Made by a program: the position numbers and the translations under genes
Part shown: piece by piece, positions 17,987-64,000 of the stretch
How positions within the stretch are numbered: the first letter of the stretch is position 1
Layout: each line of letters starts with the position of its first letter
NCBI RefSeq assembly: GCF_024345835.1
Contig: NZ_JAGQBW010000007.1
Coordinates: 81,366-145,365 of the forward strand
Direction: 5' to 3'
Length of the DNA: 64,000 nucleotides
Source: Synechococcus sp. HJ21-Hayes
Lineage (GTDB): Bacteria; Cyanobacteriota; Cyanobacteriia; PCC-6307; Cyanobiaceae
The notes under the pieces: model-generated
The model's input: the letters and a program-made list of their open reading frames with translations, nothing else
The model's database searches: none
Told to the model about the DNA's origin: nothing

Positions 17987-18188
17987 ATTGCGCTGGGCTG
18001 CTGTGTTGGTGACTGCCTTCTACAGTTTTCTGATCTGACTCCCTTTTCGACTTGGGGCGTCTGTCGCGACAGTGCCGTAGACCGGCCTCGTAGCCGGAAA
18101 CGAATCTCCGCTCTGACTCCCCTTCTGGTTTATCCAGGTCGGAATCTGGGGCAACACGGCACGGTGGTCCATCCTCTTCCAGTGCAAT
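17987..18188 (+). ncRNA. ssaA: 6S RNA candidate (6Sa RNA)
   Basis: A rod-like fold is visible by eye. The outer arms ATTGCGCTGG (17987-17996) and CCAGTGCAAT (18179-18188) pair, as do CTGTGTTG (18001-18008) and CAACACGG (18152-18159). The inside holds pyrimidine-rich unpaired stretches and short hairpins such as CTGTCGCGACAG and CCGGC-loop-GCCGG. About 200 bases, a closed rod with a central bubble and a position next to purK fit cyanobacterial 6S RNA, which I recall as purK-linked. It would bind RNA polymerase. Exact ends are estimates. Confidence 0.7.
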
Positions 18189-58680: not shown

Positions 58681-60021
58681 GTGTCTCTCGCTTCCGCCCC
58701 CCTCGACCGCGCGCTGGTCGGAATTCGCAGGCACCTGTTGCCGTTTCTGTTCCTGCTGTATCTGGTCGCCTATCTCGACCGGGTGAACATCTCCTTTGCT
58801 GCCGCCGGTGTGAGCGCAGCCCTGGGGCTGACCACCGCCAGCTACGGCGTTGCCGCTGGCATCTTCTTCCTCGGCTATGTGCTGTTCGAGATCCCCAGCA
58901 ATCTGATGCTCGAGCGGGTGGGCGCGCGCCGCTGGATCGGCCGCATCCTGCTCAGCTGGGGGGTGGTGGCCGGCCTGATGGCTTTCATGACCAGCGCTCA
59001 GCAGTTCAATGGGCTGCGGCTGCTGCTCGGCGTGGCGGAGGCGGGCTTCTTCCCCGGCATTGTTTTGTATCTCAGCCAGTGGGTGCCGGCCGCGCAGCGC
59101 TCCCGCACCCTGGCGGGGTTCATGTTGGCGATCCCGATGGCGGGCCTTCTGGGGGGGCCGATCTCGGCGGGATTGCTGTCGCTGCATGGTGTGGGCGGAT
59201 TGGCCGGCTGGCGCTGGCTGTTCCTGCTCGAGGCCCTGCCGGCGATCGCGCTGGCCTTTGTGGTGTGGCGGCGTCTGCCCGACCGGCCCCATCAGGCGCC
59301 CTGGCTCTCGGCTGAGGAGGCCTCAGCCCTGGAGCAGGTGCTGCAGGAGGAACAGATCCAACTCCACGGCAGTGGCCGGCAGGTGCATGGCCTGTTGGCG
59401 GGCCTGCGCCAACCGCGGCTTTGGCTGCTGGGGATTCTCTACATGGCGATCGCCACCGGCTTCTACGGATTCAGCTTCTGGATCCCGCGCTTCGTGGCCG
59501 AGGCTCTGTCACCGGCGACGGCTTCACCGGTGCTGGCCAATCTGATGAGTGCGGTTCCCTATGCCCTGGCGGTGGCCGCGATGCTGCTGGTGGGCGCCTC
59601 CTCCGATCGGAGCGGCGAGCAGCGGCTGCATGTGGCGGTGGCCCTGGCGGTGGCGGCCGTGTCGTTGGGCCTGGCCAGCGCCGGCAGTGGCCTGGTGCGC
59701 CTGGCCCTGATCAGTGTGTCCACCGCCGCCACCTTCTCCTGCCTGGGGCCGTTCTGGGCGATTCCCTCCCAGTTCCTGGGCGGCCGGGCGGCGGCGGGCG
59801 GCATTGCCTGGATCAACTCGGTGGGCAATATCGGCGGCTTCCTGGCACCGATCGTGATGGGCCGGCTGATGCTGCGGCCGGGCGGCGACGGCCTGGCGCT
59901 CGCTGGCCTGGCGGCTGTGCTGTTGCTGGCCTCGGCCCTGGCCCTGTTGCTGCCGCGCATGCAGGGGCTGGCTGATCAACTCACGACGAACAGCTGTAGT
60001 GCGACACCCCACCGGCGTTGA
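58681..60021 (+). CDS. MFS transporter, anion:cation symporter family
   Basis: A GTG-started 446-residue protein with 12 spans: [20 protein letters not shown] at helix 1, the loop-2 motif [15 protein letters not shown], and [20 protein letters not shown] at helix 4, typical of the ACS family (phthalate, tartrate and other organic anions). Substrate is unknown. The last 41 bases overlap the convergent selO gene. Confidence 0.88.
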
Positions 60022-61675
60022 AGAACTCCCTGGGCTTGAGGCGGTCGTAGGTCGCCGCCAGTTCCGGGGCTGGCTCGTTGTAGGGATGGCTGAACACCGC
60101 CTGCAGCTCCTGGATCAAGCTGGTGTCTCCCTGCGCCGCCTGTTGGTAGGCCGGTGCGACCAACCATTCGCGCCAGGTGATGGCTGGGTTCACGCGCTGC
60201 ATCGCGGCGGATGTCTCGCGGAGGTCGCCATGGGCCGCGATGGCAGCACGCCAGCGGCCGAGCCATTGGGTCCACTGCCCATTGAGCTCCTCTGAACTCG
60301 GCAGGTAGAAGCTCTCCTTCAGGGCTGAGAGGTGCTCGGGGATGGTGGCGGGAATGGCCGACAGCCTTCGGAAGGCAATCGTGTAGTCCGCCCTGGAGCT
60401 CACCAGGAGCTCCAGCAGATCGTTCACCAGTTCGGCATCAGGGGCGGCCAGGCCGAGCTTGTGGGCCCACATCGCCGCGAGTTCCTGCTCCATCGCTGCG
60501 GCAAACCCTTCGCGGATCTGATCGAGCCGTGCCAGGGCCTCGCTGTTGGTGTCAAGCAACGGCCGCAGCGCTGTCCAGAACATGTGGAAGTTGGCCTCGG
60601 CCGCCTGCGGTTGGTTGAAGAAGCTGAAGTGCTCGCCGCCGCCGGTCCAGGGCTGAAAGCGGGGATCGAACAAGTCGCAGAAGCCGAAGGGGCCGTAGTC
60701 GAGGGTGTAGCCGCCGGCGGCGCAGTTGTCGCTGTTGAAATTCCCCTGGCAGTAGCCCACCCGGATCCAGTTGGCCACCAGGGCGGTGAGCCGCGTGCGG
60801 AACAACCCCGCCAGCTCCAGCACCTGCTCGCTGAACGGGAGAGCGGGATCAATCTCCGGCCGGTAGTTGCGCTCGATCAGGTGGGCCACGATCAGGCGCA
60901 GCTCCTCCAGCGCGCCTGGATGGGCCTGGCGGCGGACGCGGCGGGCGAACAGCTCCAGCTGGCCAACCCGCAGAAACGAGGGGGCCACGCGGGTTGTGAT
61001 CGCCGCTGGGTTGTCCACCAGGATGTCTGGGTCGAACGACTGGGACCCCGGCGCGTACCAGGGCCGGCGCACGGTTTCGGCGCCGGACCCATAGAGCGTC
61101 AAGGAGCGGGAGGTGGGAATGCCCAGGGCGTGCATGAACTCCTGGGCCAGAAACTCGCGCACGCTGGAGCGCAGCACGGCCCGGCCATCGGCGCCGCGGC
61201 AGTAGGGCGTGGGGCCGCCTCCTTTCAGCTGCATCTCCCAGCGCCGGCCGTTGAACACGCCCTCAAACACGGAAATGGCTCGGCCATCGCCATAGCCGTT
61301 GCCGGTGCCAAATGGACACTGCTGGATGTATTCAGCGCCGTAGATCGAGAGGGCATAGCCGGTGGCCCAGCCATAGGGGCGCATCGGCTGCCGCGCCACG
61401 CTGATGTCGCCGGACAACAGCCGCAGGAACGCCTCGTCGTGGGCCAGGGCGTCGTCCAGACCCAGCTCCTGGAACAGGGCAGGACTGTGGGCCACATACT
61501 CCGGATTTGGAAGCGGCGTGGGTGTCACCGGCACGTAATGGCCCGAGAACACCTGGCGGGGCCGGTGATCGTGGCCATCCAGCGTGGCTTGCGGATCCGG
61601 CTGCAGCCCCTCCAGCAGCGAATAATCGGCCCGTTGCGCGAACTCAGCGAAGGTTGTGATCGGAGGGGTGCTCAC
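59981..61675 (-). CDS. selO: protein adenylyltransferase SelO
   Basis: A 564-residue pseudokinase-fold enzyme that transfers AMP to proteins. The family landmarks are visible: [40 protein letters not shown] and [18 protein letters not shown]. The C-terminus ends YSCSS, where animal SelO has selenocysteine-Ser-Ser; here the residue is cysteine. Substrates in cyanobacteria are not known. It overlaps the MFS gene tail to tail. Confidence 0.93.
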
Positions 61676-61715
61676 GGGGCTCGCGGGTTCTGGCCGGCAG
61701 GGATCAGTGGAGGCT

Positions 61716-61988
61716 AGGGATGGAGGCTTCCACCTGCAGAGTCTTCAACCCAGCGTCCATCACCTGGTTGCCCTGCGCGGGGATGTGGTGTTCAGCTACG
61801 CCAAGGGCCGCATCAGCCAGATCGGGCTGGTGGAACCAGAGGCGGGTACGGAGCGGGAGCCGGCCTGCCGGGTTACGGGGCTGCAGCGGCAGGAGTGTCT
61901 GGTGGCGAGCCACAGCAAACCCTGGCGCCACGGCCACAACCGCGAGCGGCTCGAAGGCGCCAATGGCCTGCAGGTGCTGCGGCGCTGA
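61716..61988 (+). pseudogene. HNH endonuclease remnant
   Basis: The frame joins two pieces of one enzyme type. First, DGGF...LRGDVVFSYAKGRISQIGLV resembles the N-terminal recognition domain of HNH restriction-like nucleases. Then REPACRVTGLQRQECLVASH and SKPWRHGHNRERLEGANGL is the start of an HNH_2 domain. The segment that should separate them, and everything after NGL (including the usual LDALFD part), is missing; the frame stops at VLRR. A dead endonuclease is the simplest reading. Confidence 0.65.
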
Positions 61989-62457
61989 ACGTTGGTCCTT
62001 CGAGCAGGCGGCACCTGTGGGGTAGCCGTTGTGGTGGAGGACGAGGTGGTTGAGAGGCTGGCGGGGAAAGCCGGCACAGGTATAGACAACGCGGGTGGCC
62101 ACGGGTATGAAGCGGCTGCGCCTGTAGGTGCCACCGGTATCTCAGTTGCCGTTTGCAGCGTGACGGCCTACCAGCTGCAGGGGCACATGGGGAGGTGCGA
62201 GTGGCAGAGACAAGCGGTGCACTCCAGCTCAACAGCATTGTTCTGAAGGCCATCAACACAAAGGCCTTAGGCAAGAAGGAGCGAGCCAATGGCCTGATCC
62301 GCATTCAGCGGGTCCGCATAACATCCCGATGGATTACAGGGGCCACGCGAAAAGACAGCCTCCGACGGGCCTATTGTGTTGTTGCCTGTGGAGGCGGAGG
62401 CTCTTATACGGACATGACAAGGGCGCAGCAGGGATTAGGCGGGTCCGCCCATTCAGC
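61989..62457. other. about 470 bases without a convincing gene
   Basis: Frames exist on both strands but none has a recognisable family. The region contains two copies of GCGGGTCCGC (62308-62317 and 62439-62448), each close to CATTCAGCG, arranged with the second copy directly before the first GTTAGAG site. It may be the remains of cassettes or an insertion-site region. Confidence 0.45.
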
Positions 62458-62464
62458 GTTAGAG
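62458..62464 (+). other. GTTAGAG core site (cassette boundary candidate)
   Basis: The heptamer GTTAGAG within GCGTTAGAG is identical to the closing heptamer of the attC-like element at 63059-63158, and marks the left edge of the orphan-gene cassette. In integrons, recombination cuts after the first G of such GTTRRRY sites. Its own left partner is not clear. Confidence 0.45.
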
Positions 62465-62484
62465 TGAGTTGACGCCATTTACTC

Positions 62485-63012
62485 ATGACCACGGCTCGCA
62501 TTGGTTATGTCGCAGAAAGCAAGGCAGTTGTTTCTTGTTATCATCACTATGATGGTTACCCGCAGTGGCTTGGTAGAATTCTTGCCTCATTCTACTGTTC
62601 ATTTGGAGATGTCAAGGCATTGATAGATGGCGGGGATATGCAATGCTGCTTTTCAAATACTGATTTTGAAGGGTGTATAGTTCTTGATGAATTCGGTGCA
62701 CCTAGCCGGATCTGGACGCCTCTTTATTATTCTGAAAGAGGTTCTGGCGAATTCGGCTCGATGATTCACAAAGATCTTGATGACTTCCTGGGGTATTGCG
62801 GTTTTGGACGGGGTGTGCACCTACACAAAGAAAGACTTGAATTTGCTTACCTGTATGCTGATGAGAAATGGACTTGCTATGACATTTTCAAGGATCAGGT
62901 TTATCAAGCGCCTTTTGATAGTTCAGCCACAGATGCTGCTGAACACATCATCCGCAAGCTAGATCTATACGAACGGATAGACGGTGAATTAAAATGGCAA
63001 ATGTCTTTATGA
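62485..63012 (+). CDS. orphan AT-rich gene in a cassette-like unit
   Basis: A 175-residue protein, clearly richer in A/T than every neighbouring gene. It contains CYHHYDGYPQWLG near residue 18, a motif type (Y-x-H-x-DGYP) seen in small proteins of phages and mobile elements. The remainder has many aromatic and acidic residues and no known catalytic motif. It starts 27 bases after a GTTAGAG site and ends about 46 bases before an attC-like palindrome, with no terminator or good ribosome site. Confidence 0.65.
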   Translation: MTTARIGYVAESKAVVSCYHHYDGYPQWLGRILASFYCSFGDVKALIDGGDMQCCFSNTDFEGCIVLDEFGAPSRIWTPLYYSERGSGEFGSMIHKDLDDFLGYCGFGRGVHLHKERLEFAYLYADEKWTCYDIFKDQVYQAPFDSSATDAAEHIIRKLDLYERIDGELKWQMSL

Positions 63013-63058
63013 GCAATCGAATCGCATTCGGCATTTCAATGGTGTCTGCCTTAGTCCA

Positions 63059-63158
63059 CTCTAACGACGCAATGCACCTGTCCCGCTCCCCGAAAGTATG
63101 CACCCAGTGAATAGCTCTGGCAATAGCCCCTGCGGGCAGGTGATCGCTGGCGTTAGAG
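63059..63158 (+). other. attC-like recombination site
   Basis: A 100-base imperfect palindrome. The outer arms CTCTAAC (63059-63065) and GTTAGAG (63152-63158) are fully complementary. Inside them CACCTGTCCCGC pairs with GCGGGCAGGTG except for one bulged T, with a short unpaired spacer between the two stems and about 44 bases of variable centre. Paired R boxes, spacer, paired L boxes with an extrahelical base and a variable loop are the architecture of integron attC sites. The R boxes differ from RYYYAAC/GTTRRRY only at the outermost base. Confidence 0.6.
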
Positions 63159-63221
63159 AGATGGGGGCGAAGCGGTTGCAGCCCAGAGCTAGTATACTCT
63201 CTGTATAGCCGCTGGGTTGCT

Positions 63222-63467
63222 GTGCGGACACGGGTCCAGAAATGGGGAAACAGTCTCGGGGTGCGGATCCCGCGCGGCCTGGCTGAGGAGGTTGGCCTCG
63301 GCGCTGGCTCTGAAGTTAGCTTGAGTGCCAAGGATGGCGAGCTTGTCGTGAAACCGTCGGTTCCTGCTCGCCTCAGCCTCGACGATCTCTTGGCAGAGGT
63401 CTCAGAGGAGAACCTCCATTCCTCTATCGATACGGGTTCAGCTGTCGGTGCGGAGATCTTCTGTTGA
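63222..63467 (+). CDS. MazE-type antitoxin (AbrB/SpoVT fold)
   Basis: An 81-residue protein with the swapped-hairpin DNA-binding domain: VQKWGNSLGVRIPRGLAEEV then GAGSEVSLSAKDGELVVKP, and a flexible C-terminus that would wrap the toxin. The start is GTG. The stop overlaps the TTG start of the toxin gene (TTGA). It should bind its own promoter together with the toxin. It lies in the second cassette-like unit. Confidence 0.88.
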   Translation: MRTRVQKWGNSLGVRIPRGLAEEVGLGAGSEVSLSAKDGELVVKPSVPARLSLDDLLAEVSEENLHSSIDTGSAVGAEIFC

Positions 63468-63823
63468 CTGCTGCGTATGTCCCTGATCGGGGTGACTTGG
63501 TCTGGCTGGAGTTCACACCGCAGACGGGTAGTGAGCAGGCTGGAAGGCGTCCTGCTTTGGTGATCTCGCCGAAGGCCTACAACGCGAAGGTTGGCTTGGC
63601 CTTGTTTTGTCCGGTGACATCACGTGTTAAGGGCTATCCCTTCGAGGTTGCCTTGCCAGATGGTGGTGGTGTGGTCGGTGTCGTTCTTGCTGATCAATTG
63701 AAGAGCCTTGATTGGCGTGCCAGGAAGGCGAAGCTGATTGAGCGCGCTTTGCCTGAGGTGCTGGCAATGGTTACTGCAAGGATTCTGCCCTTGCTTGTTC
63801 CCGACAATGCTGCCACTCTCTAA
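63464..63823 (+). CDS. MazF/PemK-type mRNA interferase toxin
   Basis: A 119-residue ribonuclease toxin: PDRGDLVWLEFTPQTGSEQA then GRRPALVISPKAYN, LALFCPVTSRVKGYPFEVAL and VVLADQLKSLDWRAR, the complete MazF core. It cleaves mRNA when not bound by the antitoxin. The TTG start overlaps the antitoxin stop. The TAA stop is part of the R box of the following attC-like element, as is usual for compact integron cassettes. Confidence 0.9.
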   Translation: MTAAYVPDRGDLVWLEFTPQTGSEQAGRRPALVISPKAYNAKVGLALFCPVTSRVKGYPFEVALPDGGGVVGVVLADQLKSLDWRARKAKLIERALPEVLAMVTARILPLLVPDNAATL

Positions 63824-63875
63824 CACGGCCATGCACCTGACCCGCCCCCAAAGACAGGGCTGATTCAAAGTGTGG
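63818..63875 (+). other. left half of a second attC-like site, interrupted
   Basis: CTCTAAC (63818-63824) is followed after six bases by ATGCACCTGACCCGC and CCCAAAG, matching the left half of the element at 63059 (ATGCACCTGTCCCGC, CCCGAAAG) almost base for base. The expected right half with GCGGGCAGGTG and GTTAGAG is absent; a transposase-like gene begins instead, so an insertion has probably split or deleted the site. Confidence 0.5.
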
Positions 63876-64000
63876 TCACGGGTTGAGCTCTGGTTGTCGT
63901 CGCGCCATCGCCAGCAGTGCCTTGATGTCATGCATCACCGCTTGCAGGCCCTCGCGGATCGAGTCGAAACCGGCCAGGCGCAGCAGATTGAGACCAGCGG
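63876..64000 (-). CDS. transposase C-terminus, possibly ISAs1 family (partial)
   Basis: The last 41 residues of a minus-strand protein: AGLNLLRLAGFDSIREGLQA then VMHDIKALLAMARRQPELNP. The pattern NLLRxxGFxSIxxGLxAxxHDIxxLL is that of the end of ISAs1-like (H-repeat) transposases. The rest lies beyond the window. The element's end should be between the attC-like half-site and the stop codon, but its inverted repeat cannot be defined from one side. Confidence 0.55.
   Translation of the reverse strand, partial: AGLNLLRLAGFDSIREGLQAVMHDIKALLAMARRQPELNP

What the first reader, a model, noticed from the sequence alone, without database searches (positions are those of the whole stretch)
62458..63888. 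Integron-style gene-cassette array in a picocyanobacterium
Two consecutive plus-strand units each have a gene or gene pair followed by the same type of imperfect palindrome: an AT-rich orphan gene, then a MazE/MazF pair. Unit edges carry GTTAGAG, stops lie at or near the palindrome, and there are no internal promoters obvious by eye. This layout is that of mobile integron cassettes, where toxin-antitoxin cassettes are common. No integrase gene is in view, so this may be an attC cluster lacking integrase or the edge of a larger array. I know of few described in this group of cyanobacteria.
Basis: partly seen in the sequence, partly recalled or inferred. Interest (0 to 1): 0.88.

Follow-up and report, generated by a model that had tools for sequence, protein, structure and literature searches.

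The report
Integron landing dock without local integrase
This freshwater picocyanobacterium carries an integron landing site (attI) followed by two gene cassettes, with no integrase gene beside it; many related genomes hold several such sites, often likewise without an integrase gene beside them, so one integrase likely loads genes into several landing sites from a distance.

Summary
attC1 (63059-63158) is a genuine attC by its fold, by the position of its two extrahelical bases, and by a profile built only from other genomes. The second 'palindrome' is only the 5' arm of an attC (63818 to about 63854), cut by an insertion sequence that repeats in this genome. Addition: 62308-62462, just upstream, is a full-length attI: a profile of 21 attI sites that sit directly behind intI genes of other picocyanobacteria finds it at E 4e-16. 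No intI remnant was found beside it; the genome's only intI match is a fragment cut by the same insertion sequence. So this is an attI-headed platform without its own integrase, not merely an attC cluster. Such orphan attI sites recur: of 90 strong attI hits in 300 Cyanobiaceae genomes, 49 have no intI match within 400 nt upstream. One closed genome has an identical gene-less cassette at two different orphan attI. One orphan attI locus is shared by 11 genomes, with different DNA behind the core. Likely model: dispersed docks fed in trans by IntI (untested). The parts are known; this arrangement I did not find in the papers searched.

The parts
62308..62462 (+). attI (cassette landing site) without intI beside it; core G/TT at 62458/62459
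   Evidence: profile of 21 intI-linked attI of other genomes, E 3.8e-16, positions 3-158; R3 E 9e-16; GCGGGTCCGC block repeated near both ends; no IntI remnant better than E 0.2 in 59500-64000
62459..63152 (+). cassette 1, between the attI core and the attC1 core
   Evidence: GTTAGAG at both edges
62485..63012 (+). orphan ORF of cassette 1, 175 aa, function unknown
   Evidence: ORF; no Pfam family; 272 proteins at E <= 1e-3, the closest 55-60% identical
63059..63158 (+). attC1, complete; R'' CTCTAAC 63059-63065, R' GTTAGAG 63152-63158
   Evidence: fold; profile from other genomes E 8e-14
63222..63467 (+). mazE-like antitoxin gene of cassette 2
   Evidence: PF04014 above cut-off
63464..63823 (+). 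mazF/pemK-like toxin gene of cassette 2; stop codon inside attC2 R''
   Evidence: PF02452 above cut-off; TAA at 63821-63823
63818..63854 (+). attC2, 5' arm only, cut by the insertion sequence
   Evidence: 81% identical to the attC1 5' arm over 32 nt; profile positions 2-32, E 5e-4
63855..64000 (-). end of an insertion sequence, runs off the contig
   Evidence: 10 matches in the genome; a related copy in C1 has a DDE_Tnp_1-associated protein, PF13808

Best explanation
The end of the window is an integron platform without its own integrase: a full attI (62308-62462) followed by two sense-oriented cassettes (an orphan gene and mazEF), the second cut by an insertion sequence, which an integron integrase would likely have loaded from elsewhere in the genome. 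Shown: attI, attC1, half of attC2, no intI found beside them, a cut intI on another contig. Inferred: IntI binds the stand-alone attI and inserts circular cassettes at G/TT as at an intI-linked attI. On this reading Cyanobiaceae keep several attI docks round the chromosome, and an IntI serves them in trans. In this particular genome the only intI match is a fragment, so its docks are predicted to be frozen unless another integrase arrives.
For: attI profile without own-genome sites: E 3.8e-16, full length; control of 2.5 Mb shuffled or reversed sequence, best E 4.2. attC1 by a foreign profile. 51 of 65 attI genomes have an above-cut-off intI, against 9 of the other 235 (related genomes, so not independent). 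49 of 90 attI hits lack an intI match within 400 nt upstream. Of 18 such sites fetched, 15 show no IntI similarity and 10 have an attC downstream at E <= 1e-3. Identical gene-less cassette at two orphan attI of one closed genome whose attI bodies are 64.5% identical. Conserved orphan attI locus whose sequence similarity ends at the core.
Against: No recombination assay. The genome's IntI is broken, so loading at this dock is not possible now with what the assembly shows. 18 of 90 attI hits sit beside intI fragments and 3 of 18 fetched orphans have IntI remnants, so some orphan docks are decayed integrons. 8 of 18 fetched orphan docks gave no attC hit at E <= 1e-3. At the conserved locus 6 of 12 cores have lost GTT and 4 of 12 are not hit by the attI model. 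No comparison locus exists for the window dock itself.
Confidence: 0.8

Rival explanations
1. A former complete integron whose intI was deleted in place; attI and cassettes are leftovers and no loading in trans ever happened here.
For: 18 of 90 attI hits lie beside intI fragments; L210, L218 and L220 keep IntI remnants upstream of attI; this genome does lose intI.
Against: No IntI remnant at the window or C11 docks, in 15 of 18 orphan loci or in the 12 loci of the conserved dock. The broken intI of this genome sits elsewhere, at the place where G005 has its intact intI, and is 96% identical to it over 81 residues, while the window attI is 65% identical to the G005 attI. It also does not explain identical cassettes at two orphan docks.
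Confidence: 0.12
2. The cassettes were inserted at a chance genomic site (attG) and the sequence upstream only resembles attI.
For: attG insertion is described in print (Loot 2024, seen only as a reference and in passages); a G/TT core alone is short.
Against: The whole 155-nt attI profile matches, not just the core.
Confidence: 0.03
3. The palindromes are a MITE or other dispersed repeat, not attC.
For: Similar copies exist in the genome, and in the own-genome intervals of contigs C31 and C3 that I scored the longest ORF reads against the attC in 4 of 4.
Against: 91 model hits in 80 intI loci are all on the intI strand, 90 of them downstream of intI; unpaired bases at 8 and 15 nt recur in attC of different sequence.
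Confidence: 0.02
4. Assembly artefact: attI and cassettes were brought together by misassembly at a contig end.
For: Contig C37 ends 1.5 kb behind attI in a repeated insertion sequence.
Against: attI, attC1 and mazEF lie inside the contig, before the repeat; the same arrangement occurs in single-contig genomes.
Confidence: 0.02

Closest known systems
Chromosomal integron with intI read toward attI, as in Treponema (PMC3607928, section 9; its intI tree groups Treponema with a Synechococcus sp.)
   Same: attI, attC cassettes and, in relatives with an intact intI, the same direction of intI
   Different: no intI at this dock; docks elsewhere in the genome
CALIN (attC cluster lacking an integrase, IntegronFinder; passages of PMC9024848)
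   Same: attC cassettes without intI nearby
   Different: headed by a full attI; only one complete attC plus one half in the window
attG insertion of cassettes into genomes (Loot 2024; not held, seen as a citation and in passages)
   Same: cassettes outside the main integron
   Different: the target here is a conserved 155-nt attI, not a minimal G/TT site
Gene-less promoter cassettes of Vibrio (PMC11014356, abstract and outline seen)
   Same: short cassette without a gene in front of others, here a 139-nt one at four platforms of genome G120
   Different: promoter activity not tested here; it sits as first cassette at several attI
mazEF / pemIK type II toxin-antitoxin pair
   Same: domains and overlapping order of the two genes
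   Different: carried as an integron cassette; activity not tested

Membership tests
complete integron | intI gene beside attI | tested here: not met
   no IntI similarity better than E 0.2 in window 59500-64000; the one intI match is a fragment on C16
complete integron | attI site | tested here: met
complete integron | attC with R''/R' boxes and extrahelical bases | tested here: met
   attC1; attC2 only half
complete integron | whole-unit exchange at G/TT | tested here: inconclusive
   seen at the C12 dock of the same genome; no comparison locus for the window dock
complete integron | platform promoter Pc | not tested
   only a consensus scan, nothing above chance
CALIN | at least two attC without intI (IntegronFinder 2 default, passage) | tested here: inconclusive
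   one complete attC and one half in the window; IntegronFinder itself was not available
attG insertion site | target without attI architecture | tested here: not met
   full-length attI profile match
mazEF toxin-antitoxin | MazE and MazF/PemK domains in adjacent genes | tested here: met
   PF04014 and PF02452 above cut-off
mazEF toxin-antitoxin | toxin activity neutralised by the antitoxin | not testable with these tools
   needs expression

The most novel reading that the evidence does not exclude
Picocyanobacteria run a distributed integron: one trans-acting integrase serves several inherited, integrase-free attI docks fixed at separate chromosomal loci, at least one of them conserved across genera, and can fit several docks with the same gene-less starter cassette, so that gene capture happens at many places of the chromosome rather than in one array.
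Probability: 0.7. Interest if true: 0.87.

Novelty: new variant of a known kind. Interest (0 to 1): 0.8.

Why it matters
An integron is normally described as intI, attI and its array in one place. Stand-alone attI docks kept at fixed loci would make cassette capture a chromosome-wide service, would help explain why integrase-less arrays persist, and give a large natural set of attI sites (about 155 nt with repeat blocks) for testing what an attI needs. Surveys keyed on intI or on attC clusters alone would miss the docks themselves.

Tried and rejected
Window locus synteny: 61000-62456 matches same-genus genomes only up to about 61690, in the gene upstream, and 61990-62462 in 300 genomes matches, apart from the own genome, only a stretch of about 140 nt at 62005-62153, not the attI; so no empty site was found for the window. 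C11 attI: a paralogous flank in the same genome (89-90% identical) stops 48 nt before the attI, suggestive only. My arm-pairing scan for attC gives 2-3 chance sites per 10 kb at scores 24-25 and was used for geometry only. RNAalifold on A1 missed the outer stem, so the structure was written by hand; covariation is weak (6 pairs with both sides changed, 5 of 500 shuffles reach that; percentage paired reached by 36 of 500). R1 gave one weak minus-strand hit in an intI locus (L070, E 0.14). The G004 'intI' hit (profile 1-179) looks like the recombinase found beside an IS91-like transposase in L221 (labels recalled), not IntI; other weak hits covering about 14-180 are probably the same. Pfam and PADLOC gave nothing convincing for the orphan ORF (one PADLOC match at E 0.013). 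Paper searches turned up no report of stand-alone attI docks; one search returned mostly unrelated papers on attitudes, and most subscription papers are not held, so this is no proof of absence.

Not done: the second attI type (ending CAATAAAGAGTTAG) got no profile, so dock counts are lower bounds; further listed attI hits, for example in G068, G112, G141, G197 and G219, were not fetched as 6-kb loci; 13 of the 25 rows that matched the C12 query only in part were not aligned.

Full report
What the window holds. The last 1.7 kb of the window (contig C37 ends at base 64000) reads: attI 62308-62462; cassette 1 (62459-63152) with an orphan ORF and attC1 63059-63158; cassette 2 with mazE 63222-63467 and mazF 63464-63823; the 5' arm of attC2 from 63818; from about 63855 the end of an insertion sequence. 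GTTAGAG stands at 62458 and 63152, and the mazF stop lies inside the CTCTAAC of attC2. The insertion-sequence end has 10 matches in the genome, this one included, several at contig ends, which probably explains why the contig stops here.

attC. The site folds better than shuffles (z -3.9 and -3.1; z -2.9 for the trimmed minus strand). The folded bottom strand carries two unpaired bases on its 3' arm, and in my scan the bulges lie 8 and 15 nt from AAC, a geometry that recurs in attC of different sequence. That this is the canonical place is recalled knowledge of attC sites. A profile of 91 aligned hits from other genomes (of 99; 8 own-genome hits dropped) finds attC1 at E 8e-14 and the half site at 5e-4. 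Covariance models R1 and R2 contain own-genome sites and are not independent evidence for them. R2 over 88 sources gives 99 hits; 91 lie in the 80 named intI loci, all on the intI strand, 90 downstream of intI and one weak one (L053, E 0.15) upstream. So in this clade intI reads toward its array, as described for Treponema (PMC3607928, section 9 read).

attI. Behind the intI stop codon of picocyanobacterial integrons lies a site of 134-160 nt with CGGACCCGC-like blocks near both ends and a core such as AGCGTTAG. A profile of 21 such sites (20 named loci plus L028, chosen by me as one sequence type; none from this genome) was run over eight own-genome stretches. It finds two full-length plus-strand sites, window 62308-62462 (E 3.8e-16) and C11 (L015 4747-4903, E 3.7e-9), and a weak partial minus-strand overlap of the window site (E 8e-5). 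Control of 2.5 Mb shuffled or reversed sequence: one hit, E 4.2. A whole-genome search adds a third site in C12 (E 1.1e-5), which has an attC downstream. tblastn with seven IntI finds nothing at the window or C11 docks better than E 0.05; the only good match is the C16 fragment, to about residue 90, which ends where the insertion sequence begins. It is 96% identical over 81 residues to the intact IntI of relative G005, which has the same neighbouring gene.

Is this general? R3, the same 21 attI as a sequence model, hits 65 of 300 Cyanobiaceae genomes at E <= 1e-3 (filters that lose weak matches); 45 of the 65 have two or more hits. The intI family TIGR02249 is above cut-off in 60 of the 300 and at E <= 1e-20 in 78 (some weak ones are other recombinases). 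51 of the 65 attI genomes have an above-cut-off intI against 9 of the other 235; three attI genomes, G068, G129 and G219, have no intI match at E <= 1e-20. Taking the 90 attI rows down to E 9e-9: 23 follow a full-length intI (some of these are the sites that trained the model), 18 an intI fragment, 49 have no intI match within 400 nt upstream on their strand. Limits: the intI listing is cut at about 5e-27, and an intI beyond a contig edge would be missed. I fetched 18 sites without listed neighbouring intI, 16 from single-contig genomes, one from two-contig G141 and one from this genome. 15 of 18 show no IntI similarity at E <= 0.01 in 5.5-6 kb; 3 show remnants (L210, L218, L220). 10 of 18 have an attC downstream at E <= 1e-3, 11 at E <= 0.05, 7 none; all 17 attC hits in the 20 loci of that call are on the attI strand and downstream.

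Signs that orphan docks receive cassettes. (a) In closed genome G120, with one intI match, a 139-nt cassette without a gene, with its own foldable attC-like end (z -4.4 and -5.1; not hit by R2) and a promoter-like stretch (by eye), sits at the core of orphan attI L204 and L206 (100% identical) and L205 (89%), and at L207 (98.6%), where R3 matches two parts of an attI 1.2 kb apart behind intI. The orphan attI bodies are 63-73% identical to each other, and the L204/L206 similarity runs only from -15 to +136 about the core, so this is not a copied dock. Relatives of this cassette stand at attI in L196, L197, L215 and L217 and behind an attC in L067. (b) The C12 dock of this genome is a shared locus. 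Its flank plus attI matches 20 of 300 genomes at E <= 1e-8. In the 12 loci that match nearly the whole query (11 genomes, 7 genera) identity to L202 is 72-85% (own copy 100%) up to the core and then ends: mean pairwise 71.5% in the last 100 nt before, 51.7% in the first 100 nt after, 51.3% for shuffled sequence; no IntI similarity in any of the 12. 8 of the 12 are hit by R3; GTT is intact in 6 of 12 cores; 5 of 12 have an attC downstream within the 1.5 kb held. In three (L232, L237, L238) the right flank resumes just behind the attC hit, so what differs is the unit between attI core and attC end. The own-genome unit there carries a DUF4365 protein.

Reading. Shown: full-length attI without intI, recurrent, at one locus shared across genera, with different DNA behind the core. 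Inferred: IntI inserts cassettes there in trans; no assay was run. In this genome the integrase is broken, so its docks would be inactive now. How docks first arise is open: 18 of 90 sit beside intI fragments, so loss of intI is one route.

Literature seen: PMC3607928 section 9; passages of PMC3607928, PMC3108266, PMC2426708, PMC9024848, PMC9668308, PMC11023631, PMC12901181, PMC10127599, PMC5101192, PMC8352920; abstract and outline of PMC11014356; everything else only as search listings. Cyanobacterial integrons are known in print (passages of PMC2426708, PMC9668308, PMC8352920). I found no description of stand-alone attI docks in searches. A passage of PMC10127599 says that attI-like sites are frequent in genomes, in the context of off-target recombination at a short core motif, which differs from the 155-nt sites here.

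Noticed in passing
L013, L014 (own contigs C31, C3) and L042 (Vulcanococcus sp. Clear-D1): Cassette genes run against the attC orientation: 4 of 4 scored intervals here and 4 of 5 in L042 (1 unclear), against 3 reversed, 29 sense and 6 unclear of the 38 other scored intervals (8 of 55 intervals skipped for length). Many of these proteins are acidic orphans without Pfam match.
   Followed up: partly
L203-L207, L196, L197, L215, L217, L067: A 139-nt cassette without a gene, promoter-like by eye, stands at several attI of one closed genome and in relatives.
   Followed up: partly
L218, L221 (G105) and L220: An element with a tyrosine recombinase and an IS91-like transposase (label recalled) begins exactly at attI cores; 100% identical copies at two attI of one genome, in tandem at one.
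   Followed up: partly
L014 2116-2691 (own contig C3): A second mazEF-like unit behind an attC; its mazF-like reading frame is broken, and half an attC follows, as in the window.
   Followed up: partly
window 62005-62153: A stretch of about 140 nt just upstream of attI that matches 45 other Cyanobiaceae genomes of 300 at about 70-80% identity, once or twice each; nature unknown, no Pfam match for the minus-strand ORF over it.
   Followed up: no
window 17992-18174: 6S RNA gene, the only Rfam hit above gathering score in the window.
   Followed up: no
   Followed up: no
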